The notes under the pieces: model-generated
The model's database searches: none
Told to the model about the DNA's origin: nothing
The model's input: the letters and a program-made list of their open reading frames with translations, nothing else
Assembly (NCBI GenBank): GCA_903929755.1
Contig: CAIYVZ010000154.1
Location: 1 to 46,793, forward strand
Reading direction: 5' to 3'
DNA from: an uncultured Acidobacteriia bacterium
GTDB taxonomy: Bacteria; Acidobacteriota; Terriglobia; Bryobacterales; Bryobacteraceae
DNA: 46,793 nt
Position numbers and translations under genes: made by a program
Shown here: piece after piece, positions 11,960 through 15,881 of the stretch
Position numbering within the stretch: position 1 is the stretch's first letter
Layout: the number at the start of each line of letters is the position of its first letter

Positions 11960-12202
11960 ATGACTATTGACCATCAGATGGCGGCGACGGAGTTCAAAGC
12001 GAAGTGCCTGAAGCTCCTGGATGACGTCGCCTCGACGCGAGAAAGTCTGACGATTACCAAACACGGCCACCCGGTCGCGCGCGTGGTGCCTATAGAGCCA
12101 CCCCAGGCGGCGTCCCTTTTTGGGGGATGGGAAGCGCTTCTTCATGTCTCGGGAGACATCGTGAATATGGATTCTTCGGAAGAATGGGAAGCCCTCCGGT
12201 GA
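11960..12202 (+). CDS. Type II antitoxin, Phd/YefM (VapB-like) family
   Basis: 80 residues. The N-terminal part (AATEFKAKCLKLLDDVASTR, then LTITKHGHPVARVVPIE) is a typical Phd/YefM DNA-binding fold, which represses its own promoter. The C-terminal tail (GDIVNMDSSEEWEALR) would wrap around the toxin. The gene overlaps the following PIN-domain gene, so the pair is an operon with coupled translation. Autoregulation by the antitoxin or the complex is expected from the family. No operator was identified with confidence in the 50 bases between the terminator and the start. Confidence 0.9.
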   Translation: MTIDHQMAATEFKAKCLKLLDDVASTRESLTITKHGHPVARVVPIEPPQAASLFGGWEALLHVSGDIVNMDSSEEWEALR

Positions 12203-12609
12203 GGTCGGGGCCGGCGGCAATACTGGACACACATTGCCTGATCTGGCTGAAGAACCAGCCGGACAAGCTCACGGCGGCGCAAACCACAGTGCTGCGCGGC
12301 ATACAGGGGCGTGGTAGATGCGTTGGCATCAGCGCGATCACACTGTGGGAAATCGCCATGCTGGTTTCCAAAGGCCGCGTCCAGACGGCAGTGCCCCTGA
12401 GTGATTTGCTGGAGCGAATTGAGAAAGATCCGACACTGGTTGTCCTGCCACTGAGCGGGCTGGTTGCCGCTGCGAGCGTAGACTTGGGAGAGGCATTCCA
12501 TGGCGATCCGGCGGACCGGCTGATTACGGCTACGGCGAAGGTTTACGGACTGCCGCTGTTGACGGCCGACCAACGGATTCGCGAATCGGGCGTTGTAACG
12601 GTTATTTGA
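12199..12609 (+). CDS. vapC: PIN-domain toxin (VapC-like ribonuclease)
   Basis: PIN domain starting at AAILDTHCLIWL, with the first catalytic Asp in LDTH. It continues with GISAITLWEIAMLVSKGR (second acidic residue), GDPADRLITATAKVYGLPLLTADQRI (third and fourth acidic residues) and the C-terminal VVTVI strand. VapC toxins are Mg-dependent RNases cutting tRNA or rRNA; the target here is unknown. The GTG at 12199 overlaps the antitoxin TGA (GTGA) and has GGGAAG about 8 bases upstream. An ATG at 12184 is an alternative, but its purine-rich stretch lies too close. The product would be about 136 residues, normal for the family. Confidence 0.88.
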   Translation: MRSGPAAILDTHCLIWLKNQPDKLTAAQTTVLRGIQGRGRCVGISAITLWEIAMLVSKGRVQTAVPLSDLLERIEKDPTLVVLPLSGLVAAASVDLGEAFHGDPADRLITATAKVYGLPLLTADQRIRESGVVTVI

Positions 12610-12621
12610 GAGCGCATGGGG

Positions 12622-13275
12622 TCAGGCGGCCTTCGGGAGAGGGGCTTTGGACCAGTGGCCGCAGCAGTTTTTGTATTTCTTGCCGGAGGTGCAGGGGCAC
12701 GGGGCGTTTCTGGGGGTGGCAGGTTTCGGTGAGGGCTGCGCGGGGGCCAGGGATTCGGGTTCCGGGAGCGGGTCGGGGTTGTTTTTGCGGAATTCGGCCA
12801 GTTGGCGGCGCTCTTCGTCCTGAATTTGGGCGTGGAGGATGGCTTCGCTTCGGCTGATGTCGGCGGCGGTCGGATTTTCGGGCTGCATTTTTGTTTCCTC
12901 GTGTTGTTTGGGTAGTTTGAGAGCGGGGAGGACGAGTTTCAGGCTGGCGACGCCGGGTAAAAGGATGCCGAGGTGGGCCTGAAGGTAGCGGTCGGACTGG
13001 ATTCGGCGGAGTTCTTCGAGATTGCGGCGAATTCCGGCGTTGGTTTGATTCCGGTAGTGAAGCCAGGCGGCGCGGGTCTGCTCGGGCATGTCCGGAGTGT
13101 CGAAAATGGCGTAGCTTTGGATGCGCCATGTGGCGCGGACGATTTCGGCGGCGAAGTAGCATTCCAGAGCTCCATTGGGATGGAGTTCGGTTTGCCATTG
13201 TTCGACGTGTTTGGAGTAGGCCTGAGTGGCTTCGATGGCTACGTCGTTGGCTGTGTAGTCGGCGAGGGTTCGCAT
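12622..13275 (-). CDS. Hypothetical protein with C-terminal SEC-C motif
   Basis: 217 residues. The last 30 residues carry a SEC-C zinc-binding motif (PRNAPCPCTSGKKYKNCCG), like that at the tail of SecA. The N-terminal half is helical (AAEIVRATWRIQSY, NQTNAGIRRNLEELRRIQSD) and looks like a family of uncharacterised proteins common in Solibacter-type acidobacteria. The middle is low-complexity and rich in Pro and Glu. Its start overlaps the 3' end of the upstream gene by 37 bases, and the two proteins share the same helical pattern (acidic/His block, then 'LxxLxRxxSDR'), so they may be split or duplicated relatives. The function is unknown. Zinc binding via the CPC...CC cluster is the only firm prediction. 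Confidence 0.7.
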   Translation of the reverse strand: MRTLADYTANDVAIEATQAYSKHVEQWQTELHPNGALECYFAAEIVRATWRIQSYAIFDTPDMPEQTRAAWLHYRNQTNAGIRRNLEELRRIQSDRYLQAHLGILLPGVASLKLVLPALKLPKQHEETKMQPENPTAADISRSEAILHAQIQDEERRQLAEFRKNNPDPLPEPESLAPAQPSPKPATPRNAPCPCTSGKKYKNCCGHWSKAPLPKAA

Positions 13276-13775
13276 GGGGTGGTTTCCTTTCTGTCTGTTT
13301 GGTTCGGGTCGACGGGTACTTTCGGTTCAACTGGCTGGGAATCTGGCACGGGCGGCGGATCTCCTCTGCGGAGCGCAAGCAGGAGGCGCAGGACGGTGCA
13401 GAACTGACGGTGGTAACGACTGTCGAGGCGGTTGAGGGCGGTAAGAACGGTCGAGTGGGCCTCGGGCGCGTGGGCCATGGCGAGGTGGTAGATGTCTTCG
13501 TGGGGCATGAGCATGTTGCCTTCGGAGTCTCTGGGGACGCGAGGGCGGAAGGTTGTGCTCTGGTGTTCGAAGACCGCCTTTTCCATGAGAGCGACGCGGA
13601 GGCTACGCCATCTGCAGATGGCGAGATCATCGACGAGGTGACGCTCGCCGAAGTTGCGAGGTTTGTAGTCTGCCCGGGCGGAGGCGACGAGGTCACCGAG
13701 CAAGTTGACGCGTTCGACACCGATGGTGAAGAGTTTAATCTCGTGTTCGAGGCGGGGGGCGCTACGTTTTGCCAT
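13239..13775 (-). CDS. Hypothetical acidobacterial protein, partner of the SEC-C gene
   Basis: 178 residues, no named domain. The core (ERHLVDDLAICRWRSLRVAL, then HSTVLTALNRLDSRYHRQF and CTVLRLLLALRR) recalls a lineage-expanded family of unknown function in Acidobacteria, in which a histidine/acidic helix is followed by an 'R-hD-R' helix. The C-terminal 40 residues are Pro/Asp/Lys-rich and probably disordered; this tail overlaps the start of the SEC-C gene in another frame. The two genes are probably co-transcribed. They lie directly beside the IS110 element, and the region may be a genomic-plasticity site. The function is not predictable. Confidence 0.6.
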   Translation of the reverse strand: MAKRSAPRLEHEIKLFTIGVERVNLLGDLVASARADYKPRNFGERHLVDDLAICRWRSLRVALMEKAVFEHQSTTFRPRVPRDSEGNMLMPHEDIYHLAMAHAPEAHSTVLTALNRLDSRYHRQFCTVLRLLLALRRGDPPPVPDSQPVEPKVPVDPNQTDRKETTPCEPSPTTQPTT

Positions 13776-13869
13776 GTTGGGCTCCTTCTGGTATGGAGTT
13801 TTTCATGCGGGGCTTGCGGGATGACGTTGGGGATTTGGGGAATTGCCTGCAGGTGATTGAAAACAGGGG

Positions 13870-14139
13870 AATAAAATTATTTTCGCCAGGCGTGAATGGC
13901 TCACCGGGGCTCCCCGGCAACGGTGGATGAAACGTTGCCCGAACTGGAATAGAGTGGGAGAGCCGGAGCCTGATCAGAGGCCGTAGCGGTCTGGGCTCAA
14001 TGCCCGTTTGTGAATGTGGCCCGGACACCCCGGATTGTTGTGCGTGGCACAACAGATTGTCGCCTTCTTCCTTGAAGAAGAGCACGTGAAGGAAAGTCAT
14101 CGATTGTTTTTCGGGTGTCCCTGGCTCGCGGCAGAATGA
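13870..14139 (+). repeat. Long direct repeat copy 1: IS110 left end, candidate bridge-RNA region
   Basis: This non-coding stretch upstream of the transposase matches 15637-15881 downstream of it. Shared landmarks are TAAAAT at 13872, GGCTCACCGG at 13898 (same 26-base spacing in both copies), GGCAACG.GGATGAAACG, an identical 19-base block at 13965-13983, CCGGACACCC at 14021 and CGGCAGAATGA at 14129. It also contains a 7-bp hairpin GTTGTGC-GTG-GCACAAC (14037-14053) that is absent from copy 2. Position and size suit a bridge RNA as known for IS110 elements, with TAAAAT as a possible -10 box. No -35 box is clear. Confidence 0.6.
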
Positions 14140-14148
14140 GGAAAACTT

Positions 14149-15585
14149 ATGACTGTTATCTGCCGCCGCTGCGCCGGACTCGACGTACATCGTGACAAAA
14201 TCGCGGTGTGCGTCCGCATTCGGAGCAACGGCAAATACGAAGAGCATCATGAAGTATTTGGAAGTTTCAACTGCGACCTGAAGAAGCTGGCCCGGTGGCT
14301 GAAAGAGCACAAGGTCCGGCGTGTGGCAATGGAATCAACCGGAGTCTACTGGATGCCGGTCTGGAACGTATTAGAGCAGTACCGCTTTGGCTTTGATCTT
14401 CTGCTGGTGAACCCCGCACAAGTCCGGGCTCTGAATGGTCACAAGACCGACCGGATCGACTGTGCCCGCATTGCCGAGTTCCTGCAGCACGGGCGGCTGG
14501 CGGGCAGCTTCATCCCTCCGGTTGCGGTTCGCCAGGCGAGGGCGCTTGAACGCCGGCGCGTAAACCTGCAGCAGGATCGCAACCGGGTTACCAACCGGAT
14601 CGGCAAGCTGCTGCAGACCGCCAACGTCAAACTGTCGAGCGTGCTGAGCAATATCGTCGGGGTGAGCGGCGAGAAGATCCTGCGTGCCCTTGCGGCGGGA
14701 GAACGCGACGGCGAGAAGCTGGCCGGCCTGGTGCATTACAGTCTGGCAGGTAAAAGGGAAGCTATCGTTCGTTCGCTGGAAGGACGTTTCGACGGACACT
14801 TCCGCTATTTGCTGACCGAACTGCTCTCCGAGCTCGATCACCTCGACCGGAAGCTGGAAAGCACCACGGCACGGCTTGCCCTGTACATGGCCCCACATCA
14901 GGATCTGTTTCTGCGCCTTTGTACAGTTCCCGGGATCGACAAGATCGTGGCCTGGACCATCCTCGCCGAGATCGGGGCCGACGTCAGCGCCTTTCCCGAT
15001 GCAAAGCACCTCGCCAGCTGGGCGGCGCTTTGTCCCGGCAACAACGAGAGCGCGGGCAAGCGAAAGTCAGGCCGAACGAACAAGGGCAACAAGTATCTGC
15101 GTCGGGCGCTGATTCAGGCCGCGTGGGCGGCGGGGCGCAGCAAGAATACCTTCCTCTCCGCTCTGTTCCTCCGCATCACGCGGCGGCATGGGATGAAGAA
15201 GGCCGCAGTCGCGGTGGCGCACCGGATGCTGGTCTACATCTTCCACATCATTCGCGATGGCGGCTCGTATGTAGAGAAAGGCGGAGATTACTTCGACCGC
15301 CGGAATCCGGAACGGGCCGCAAGCCGTCTTCTGGCGCGGCTCGATGCGCTCGACTACGACACGTCCGGCATTATCCGGAAAGTCCACAAACCGGAGCAAC
15401 CCGCCGAACTCCGTTCGGGCAGAGGCAGGCCTTGCAAGTGTGCCGAACGCGGCTTCCCGTGTCCTCATCCTCCCCGGCTATTCCGTACCCTGCCGGGGCC
15501 GAAACAACCCCCTCCGGAAGGCCAGCTGTGCCGGAAATGCAACCGATGGGGCATTGCCTGCATACACCTCGTCCCGAAAAAATAA
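14149..15585 (+). CDS. IS110-family transposase (DEDD recombinase) with Cys-rich tail
   Basis: 478 residues. The N-terminal RuvC-like DEDD domain has GLDVHRDK (Asp12), AMESTGVYW (Glu62) and GHKTDRIDCARIAEF (Asp101, Asp104). The C-terminal Transposase_20 domain has VPGIDKIVAWTILAEIG, then SWAALCPGNNESAGKRKSGR with the conserved serine block, and KGNKYLRRALIQAAWAA. Such enzymes move DNA through a circular intermediate, guided by an element-encoded RNA. After the normal end of the family (about residue 400) comes an 80-residue extension with two cysteine clusters (CKCAERGFPCPHP and CRKCNRWGIACIH) that could bind zinc. No frameshift or missing catalytic residue is visible, so the gene looks active. 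Confidence 0.95.
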   Translation: MTVICRRCAGLDVHRDKIAVCVRIRSNGKYEEHHEVFGSFNCDLKKLARWLKEHKVRRVAMESTGVYWMPVWNVLEQYRFGFDLLLVNPAQVRALNGHKTDRIDCARIAEFLQHGRLAGSFIPPVAVRQARALERRRVNLQQDRNRVTNRIGKLLQTANVKLSSVLSNIVGVSGEKILRALAAGERDGEKLAGLVHYSLAGKREAIVRSLEGRFDGHFRYLLTELLSELDHLDRKLESTTARLALYMAPHQDLFLRLCTVPGIDKIVAWTILAEIGADVSAFPDAKHLASWAALCPGNNESAGKRKSGRTNKGNKYLRRALIQAAWAAGRSKNTFLSALFLRITRRHGMKKAAVAVAHRMLVYIFHIIRDGGSYVEKGGDYFDRRNPERAASRLLARLDALDYDTSGIIRKVHKPEQPAELRSGRGRPCKCAERGFPCPHPPRLFRTLPGPKQPPPEGQLCRKCNRWGIACIHLVPKK

Positions 15586-15636
15586 CTGGCCACTTTCAAA
15601 ACCCGGCGATCCGCTATCACCCTGTTTTTTCAACGG

Positions 15637-15881
15637 GTTAAAATTTGGTGGGTTTCGAAGGACCGGCTCACCGGGGGGGGCGGCAACGGGGGATGAAACG
15701 ATTCCCGGGGGGAAGTGAAGAGGGATGGAAGGAGCCTGATCAGAGGCCGATTCCGGTCTGGAGCTTCATGCCCGAGCGTGAACGTGCCCCGGACACCCTT
15801 GGTTGTCGCCGAGTATTTTGGGGAGAGCAGCTATCGCACCGACGATGATGACCATTTCACTGAGCGCTGGCGGCAGAATGA
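15637..15881 (+). repeat. Long direct repeat copy 2: second, decayed IS110 left end
   Basis: Imperfect copy of the sequence upstream of the transposase, starting about 50 bases after its stop codon. Landmarks keep their spacing: TAAAAT at 15639, GGCTCACCGG at 15665, the identical block GGAGCCTGATCAGAGGCCG at 15731-15749, CCGGACACCC at 15789 and CGGCAGAATGA at 15871. It is 25 bases shorter than copy 1 between the first and last landmark, mostly because the 14037-14053 hairpin is missing; the break lies between two TTGT words. No transposase gene follows. It may be the start of a tandem IS copy whose body was lost. Confidence 0.55.

What the first reader, a model, noticed from the sequence alone, without database searches (positions are those of the whole stretch)
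13857..15881. IS110 element whose non-coding, candidate bridge-RNA end occurs on both sides of the transposase
About 170-250 bases before the transposase are repeated after it with preserved landmark order and spacing (TAAAAT 26 bases before GGCTCACCGG in both; an identical 19-base block at 13965 and 15731; CGGCAGAATGA at 14129 and 15871). IS110 elements carry a guide (bridge/seek) RNA in one non-coding end. Two diverged copies could mean a tandem insertion that lost one body, or an element with two guide RNAs of different target specificity. The most diverged stretches lie between conserved blocks, as expected if target-binding loops differ.
Basis: partly seen in the sequence, partly recalled or inferred. 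Interest (0 to 1): 0.72.

Follow-up and report, generated by a model that had tools for sequence, protein, structure and literature searches.

The report
Jumping gene inserted against older relative's end
A bacterial jumping gene that appears to choose its landing sites with a guide RNA has landed exactly on the left edge of an older, decayed relative, so its guide-RNA region appears twice; the second copy looks like a relic, not a second working guide.

Summary
The repeat is real. Element A is an IS110 element: core GA 13894-13895, RE end 15660, second core GA 15661-15662, transposase with intact catalytic residues, candidate bridge RNA in its left end (LE). The right-hand copy B (15661 to about 15881) starts exactly at A's right core and belongs to an older element. 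A's closest relative (87% protein identity) lacks it. In a two-contig relative genome, 3 of 4 near-identical copies of a related element lack one; the fourth carries a different, diverged LE there. B keeps its 5' 145 nt or so (76% identity) but has lost the 3' hairpins and folds no better than shuffled sequence (z +0.75). No transposase or RE was found after it.

The RNA's target loop was identified by covariation with insertion junctions in relatives. A's loop spells TTGT-GA-CCGCTA; B's left junction reads GCGT-GA-CCGGCT, a 7-nt match. So "tandem insertion" is supported and "two guide RNAs in one element" is not. In passing: transposase-free miniature IS110 elements, including three 122-bp copies in one genome, and guide-RNA ends without a detected transposase (33 of 66 testable hits). 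Expression and movement were not tested.

The parts
13872..13893 (+). left flank (left target, ...GGCGT) of A; on the reading given here it was the left flank of B before A arrived
   Evidence: diverges from L008 and L023 upstream of CGTGA; counterparts at paralogous sites without the element in L003 and L021 (by eye)
13894..13895 (+). left core dinucleotide GA of element A
   Evidence: core defined by the flanks of four near-identical copies in G026: TGT-GA-ATC on the left, AAG-GA on the right
13896..14140 (+). left end (LE) of A with candidate bridge RNA; the predicted long-range pair GGACACC/GGTGTCC and two 3' hairpins are present
   Evidence: 192.1 bits with model R1, in whose alignment it is one of 17 rows; fold z -2.0, 7 of 200 shuffles fold as well
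13984..13991 (+). 5' arm of the target loop (TAGCGGTC), predicts core plus right target GA-CCGCTA
   Evidence: 5' arm against right-target permutation test, p about 0.01-0.025 over 18 junctions
14003..14016 (+). 3' arm of the target loop: CCCG-TTTGT-GA-ATG = left-target guide, core, handshake-like 3 nt
   Evidence: covaries with insertion junctions across 49 left ends
14149..15585 (+). IS110 transposase, 478 aa; D12, E62, D101, D104 and S301 line up with the IS621 catalytic residues; extra Cys-rich C-terminal tail
   Evidence: Pfam DEDD_Tnp_IS110 and Transposase_20; alignment to IS621 8wt6, catalytic residues as named in PMC11208158 (passage), chain numbered two higher
15586..15660 (+). right end (RE) of A, ending TTTCGAAG
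   Evidence: the same RE end in L008 (TTTCGAAG-GA); TTTC[GT]AAG-GA in most relatives listed, not in L074, L079, L081 and L199, which vary
15661..15662 (+). right core GA of A, shared with the left core of B
   Evidence: boundary logic from G026 and L008
15663..15881 (+). B: relic left end of an older, related IS110 element; 5' part conserved, 3' part decayed; no transposase found downstream
   Evidence: 61.8 bits with R1; fold z +0.75, 154 of 200 shuffles fold as well; tblastn finds no transposase in 2,600 nt downstream
15771..15784 (+). remains of B's guide: CCCG-AGCGT-GA-ACG, fits the shared left flank GGCGT-GA
   Evidence: alignment A3

Best explanation
Two IS110 elements of one lineage used the same site one after the other. 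Element B inserted first at ...GGCGT-GA. Later A inserted at B's left junction, which still offered a left target plus core (GCGT-GA) and, to the right of the core, B's own end CCGG. A's candidate bridge RNA fits this as a target: its 3' loop arm spells TTGT-GA and its 5' arm predicts GA-CCGCTA, so GT-GA-CCG matches the site. Insertion gave flank - GA - A - GA - B, so B's LE now begins at the last base of A's RE. B has since lost its transposase, its RE and the 3' part of its guide RNA, or it arrived as a transposase-free derivative. Shown by sequence: the boundaries, the shared core, the absence of the second copy in relatives, the decay of B, and the covariation of the loop with junctions. 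Inferred: that the RNA is made and works as a bridge RNA, the order of the two insertions, and that the loop match caused the choice of site.
For: Closest relative L008/L070 (87% protein identity by tblastn, 88%): LE, transposase and RE are there, the RE ends at GAAGGA and is followed by an unrelated gene. G026: of four near-identical elements with different flanks, one (L020/L212) has a diverged LE starting right at its right core and three do not. Of 30 RE ends examined in 32 loci that I chose (37 motif hits less 7 that I set aside as chance), 4 are followed at once by an LE by HMM at E < 0.01 (window, L212, L080, L199); a fifth (L211) I judged by eye and the HMM did not find it. Loop against junction: 4 left-target positions match at 135 of 196 (shuffle mean 100, 0 of 20,000 reach it), the 3 positions after the core at 117 of 147 (mean 82, 0 of 20,000), n = 49; with one row for each of the 22 distinct guides, 57 of 88 (1 of 20,000) and 52 of 66 (0 of 20,000). 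Of the 11 guides that do not read GT before the core, 6 match their site at all four left-target positions (L076 and L166 AAAG, L178 TTGG, L176 CCGC, L179 GTAC, L090 GAAG). Fold z: A -2.0, B +0.75. Catalytic residues of A intact.
Against: The exact empty site, this flank followed by the right flank without A and B, was not looked for by a dedicated search and did not turn up, so the order rests on decay and on guide fit. B has no recognisable RE, so its right boundary is unknown. A's left-target guide fits the site at only two of four positions (GT); upstream the guide has TT where the site has GC, one of them possibly a G-U wobble. Of the 11 unusual guides 5 do not match at the junction the model gives (L073, L181, L182, L183, L185); for L073 and L185 a match lies a few bases away by eye. 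The fold of A's nearest relative is itself only weakly better than shuffled (z -0.98), and RNAalifold finds only 18 consensus pairs in 17 left ends. Rows in the loop test are related to each other, which the shuffles do not correct. In L199 the upstream partner looks like a miniature element, so that case is of another kind, and L080's second LE is weak with the full model (9.3 bits, E 0.09).
Confidence: 0.88

Rival explanations
1. One element with two guide RNAs of different target specificity, one at each end.
For: The two copies carry different loop sequences, and landmark order is kept in the 5' part.
Against: The second copy is absent from the closest relative and from 3 of 4 copies of a related element. 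B lost both 3' hairpins and the long-range pair and folds no better than shuffled sequence. It lies outside A's core-bounded ends.
Confidence: 0.04
2. Reverse order: A was there first and B inserted at A's right junction, reading TCGAAG-GA as its left target.
For: Some relatives have guides that read AAAG-GA or GAAG-GA (L076, L166, L090), so such targeting is possible in this lineage.
Against: B's remaining guide reads GCGT-GA, which fits A's left flank and not A's right end. B is decayed while A looks intact.
Confidence: 0.06
3. A variant of the best explanation, not exclusive of it: B is not the rest of a full element but a transposase-free derivative (guide RNA end only or miniature) that moved with help in trans before A arrived.
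For: LE-like hits without a transposase trace are common in relatives: 33 of 66 with at least 1,400 nt downstream. L009 is a full-length, well-folded example (z -3.4) and, like B, stops just before where the transposase would start (by eye).
Against: No RE motif found after B or L009, so neither is a complete miniature element as in G007.
Confidence: 0.35

Closest known systems
IS621 (IS110 group) and its bridge RNA (Durrant et al. 2024, PMC11208160: three sections and passages read; PMC11208158: passages read)
   Same: DEDD RuvC plus Tnp_20 transposase with the same five catalytic residues; long LE upstream of the gene holding a structured RNA; dinucleotide core at both ends; loop with two arms that match the two halves of the target, with core and handshake-like bases.
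   Different: Core GA, not CT; 478 aa against a 328-residue IS621 chain; RNA region about 245 nt against 177; the arms are swapped relative to IS621 (3' arm reads the left target plus core, 5' arm the right target; my inference); Cys-rich C-terminal tail. The donor loop was not identified here.
seekRNA of ISEc21 (IS110) and ISEc11 (IS1111) (PMC11187229, passages read)
   Same: Upstream non-coding RNA in ISEc21; non-coding RNA supplied in trans supports movement, and for ISEc11 ends with cargo move when transposase and RNA come in trans, which is what the miniature elements noticed here would need.
   Different: Those trans experiments are artificial; here transposase-free elements occur in genomes.
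Bacterial MITEs (MITEPsy1 PMC3189936, MITECca01 PMC9769881, MITEPye1 PMC11578231; passages read)
   Same: Short, transposase-free, repeated at different sites.
   Different: Those are linked by their authors to IS5 (queried), IS982 and IS1182 type parents and have terminal inverted repeats; the ones here have IS110-type LE and RE.

Membership tests
IS110 family transposase | DEDD RuvC-like domain plus C-terminal Tnp_20 domain with catalytic serine | tested here: met
   Pfam PF01548 E 2.4e-22 and PF02371 E 8.7e-25; D12, E62, D101, D104, S301 aligned with IS621
IS110 family element | core dinucleotide at both ends, long LE and short RE | tested here: met
   core GA from G026 copies; LE about 250 nt, RE 75 nt
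IS110 bridge RNA | structured RNA in the LE with a loop whose two arms match the two target halves | tested here: met
   5' arm evidence modest (p about 0.01-0.025), consensus fold small (18 pairs)
IS110 bridge RNA | second loop that matches the element's own donor ends | not tested
   no donor loop was looked for systematically
IS110 bridge RNA | RNA is made and binds the transposase; circular intermediate | not testable with these tools
   needs RNA-seq, binding and PCR for the circle
IS110 bridge RNA (copy B) | folds like its relatives and keeps the 3' domain | tested here: not met
   z +0.75; 3' hairpins and long-range pair missing; 61.8 against 192.1 bits for copy A, which is in the model
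miniature (non-autonomous) IS110 element (copy B) | both LE and RE present, no transposase | tested here: not met
   no RE motif after B in 2,300 nt

The most novel reading that the evidence does not exclude
In this lineage the bases that follow the core in the guide arm spell the element's own first LE bases. By the IS621 finding that handshake bases paired to the target before exchange lock the complex (PMC11208158, passages), an element would be barred from its own left junction but free to enter left junctions of relatives whose first LE bases differ. That would make old left ends a standing target and the handshake bases a self-avoidance code. Elements stripped of transposase and guide (122 bp in G007) would ride the same machinery in trans. 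In 4 of 4 stacked pairs with a known upstream guide the older end's three bases differ from the newcomer's handshake (ATG/CCG, ATC/ACG, ATG/CCG, ATG/CTC); this is compatible but no significance was tested, and only 25 of 50 ends have ATG or ATC.
Probability: 0.25. Interest if true: 0.75.

Novelty: new member of a known kind. Interest (0 to 1): 0.42.

Why it matters
The window feature is an ordinary stack of two mobile elements, but it can be read base by base because the target loop was worked out: one sees which bases of the older element the newcomer's guide matches. The lineage gives a natural data set of guide-target pairs for a bridge-RNA group other than IS621. The transposase-free miniature IS110 elements suggest that guide-directed insertion also moves small DNA in trans in nature.

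Tried and rejected
Rfam gave nothing for the LE at gathering scores, and I take the two weak hits at E 3-4 for chance. The protein scan of viral contigs found no relative. The genome-contig scan, which uses six short peptides and reaches close relatives only, found L070, L071 and L072. The idea that the right copy is a general host repeat was rejected: in the own genome the LE-like hits at E <= 0.01 are A, B, C206 and C121 (111 of 1,230 first-look candidates scored). RNAalifold on 17 left ends gave only 18 consensus pairs, 10 with a two-sided change, so the long-range pair in A is a single-sequence prediction. Right-target guide: significant only at the 0.01-0.025 level, 18 rows of which four (the G026 copies) share one guide. 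A pattern meant to spot guides in miniature elements missed L175, which has one, so its 'no guide' answers were checked by eye only. A motif hit in L087 at 124 nt lies in coding sequence and was dropped. In one search the row L212:4092 shows L012's junction by a look-up fault and was left out. Five rows whose junction the model seems to place wrongly (L073, L104, L185, L202, L210) were kept. Rows never classified for a transposase: 7 of 83 and 6 of 34. Literature: searches on IS110 or IS1111 with tandem, MITE, non-autonomous, miniature, seekRNA and bridge RNA (in one search, 15 of 39 papers and, 20 of 31 were listed) listed no paper that I could recognise as describing miniature IS110 elements or this kind of stack. 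I read three sections and passages of PMC11208160 and passages of seven others. No bioRxiv is held and ISfinder could not be consulted.

Full report
WHAT IS THERE. The closest relative found to carry the element is a Bryobacterales MAG, CANIHR010000129.1. At 14149-15585 lies a 478-residue IS110 transposase whose catalytic residues line up with IS621. The 250 nt before it are repeated after it at 15661-15881. The repeat is real (E 2e-20), but only the first 145 nt or so are well conserved; then the right copy loses about 23 nt and becomes almost unalignable until the last 12 nt or so.

ENDS OF THE ELEMENT. G026 (two contigs) holds four near-identical copies of a related element (48% protein identity) with different flanks. 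Left ends read TGT-GA-ATC and right ends TTTTCTAAG-GA, so the core is GA. In the window this puts A from the core at 13894-13895 to 15660 with the second core at 15661-15662. The right copy B starts at that core. L008, the closest relative, ends its RE at the same GAAG-GA and continues into an unrelated gene. B is therefore outside A.

NOT ALONE. In G026 one of the four copies (L020/L212) has, right at its right core, a different diverged LE; three have none. In 32 loci that I chose I listed 37 RE-like motif hits and set 7 aside as chance (inside genes, other strand or second hits), leaving 30, of which eight are from short transposase-poor elements. A profile of LE starts, built without the copies that follow an RE in the window, L212 and L199, finds an LE right after 4 of 30 (window, L212, L080, L199) at E < 0.01. 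A fifth, L211, has the GGATGAAAA box at the right place by eye and a further LE 140 nt on. In L199 the upstream partner has no transposase in 820 nt and looks like a miniature element (read by eye). The loci were not a random sample, so 4 or 5 of 30 is not a rate.

THE GUIDE. I aligned 17 left ends, built a covariance model and aligned 50 matches to it. The predicted loop between the helices AGGCC/GGCC(T) and TGG/CC(G) has a 3' arm TTTGT-GA-AT[GC] or close to it in most. Taken from fixed alignment columns, this arm matches the insertion junction: four left-target positions 135 of 196 against a shuffle mean of 100, three positions after the core 117 of 147 against 82, in neither case reached by 20,000 shuffles (n = 49 of 50 rows, one duplicate dropped). 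With one row for each of 22 distinct guides the result holds (57 of 88, 1 of 20,000; 52 of 66, 0 of 20,000). Core matches alone are not significant, since GA is nearly constant (1,230 of 20,000 reach the observed 92 of 98). Of 11 guides without GT before the core, 6 match their own site at all four left-target positions (L076, L166, L176, L178, L179, L090) and 5 do not (L073, L181, L182, L183, L185). The 5' arm predicts the bases right of the core (first three: 30 of 54 against 23.4, p 0.013; first six p 0.013). This is the IS621 target-loop layout described in PMC11208160 and PMC11208158 (sections and passages read), with the arms exchanged relative to the reading direction; the exchange is my inference.

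READING THE WINDOW. A's arms spell TTGT-GA and GA-CCGCTA. The site A entered reads AGGCGT-GA-CCGGCTCACC, which is the left junction of B; GT-GA-CCG matches (7 nt), the two bases before GT do not. Solo ends of the same type read the same: L009 GTGCGT-GA-CCGG, L002 CCCGT-GA-CCGG. B's guide remnant, AGCGT-GA-ACG, fits the shared left flank better than A's own. So I infer that B used the site first and A entered at B's left junction. B folds no better than shuffled sequence (z +0.75), against -2.0 for A, -3.4 for the solo L009 and only -1.0 for L008.

ENDS WITHOUT A TRANSPOSASE. The model found 88 LE-like hits in 87 sources at E <= 0.01. 66 have at least 1,400 nt downstream; 33 of these show a transposase trace and 33 do not. 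The sources include near-identical copies (four from G026, three from G007), 7 of 83 rows and 6 of 34 were not included, and the absence test is tblastn at E 1e-4 with eight queries, so heavily decayed genes can be missed. G007 has three copies of a 122-bp element (core to core), 99-100% identical over the 129-134 bp aligned, each with different flanks: an LE start (clear for about 45 nt) and an RE, with no guide loop that I could see and no gene. G007 shows no IS110 transposase (MAG, 95% complete, 6% contamination). L136, L195 and L194 are further short LE-RE units (182, 176 and 372 nt); L205 and L175 keep a guide, and L175 also a transposase fragment.

VERDICT. The finding is a stack of two IS110 elements, the younger inserted at the left core of the older. 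The tandem reading is supported; the two-guide reading is not. The kind is known; the guide-level reading of the site and the miniature relatives give it moderate interest.

Noticed in passing
L131, L135, L138 (G007), L136 (G012), L195 (G105), L194 (G065), L205 (G228), L175 (G090): Short elements with IS110-type LE and RE and no whole transposase; three 122-bp copies (99-100% identical) in G007, a genome with no IS110 transposase found.
   Followed up: partly
L211:4492-4653 (- strand) and the 140 nt before it, G241:C92: After A's RE comes an LE piece that seems cut near its own guide loop by the start of a further LE (by eye; 140 nt core to core against 97-129 in the 20 ends measured). Guide-coding DNA matches the target and may itself be hit.
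   Followed up: partly
flanks of 63 LE-like hits, positions -20 to -11 before GTGA: A+T is 72-73% there against 41-49% at -60 to -41 (near-identical copies not removed); several sites read TTTTC nine bases before the core by eye. Unexplained.
   Followed up: no
window 13239-13775 (- strand): Gene with no Pfam match; its upstream region recurs in the own genome (L003, L005) and in G008 (L021), and the solo LE L009 also lies beside a paralog (by eye).
   Followed up: partly
window 15400-15585: C-terminal tail of the transposase is Cys-rich (CKC...C..H, CRKC...C.H), not part of the IS621 alignment.
   Followed up: no
window 11960-12609: Phd/YefM antitoxin and PIN-domain protein pair.
   Followed up: no
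window 12622-13275 (- strand): Protein with a C-terminal SEC-C motif.
   Followed up: no
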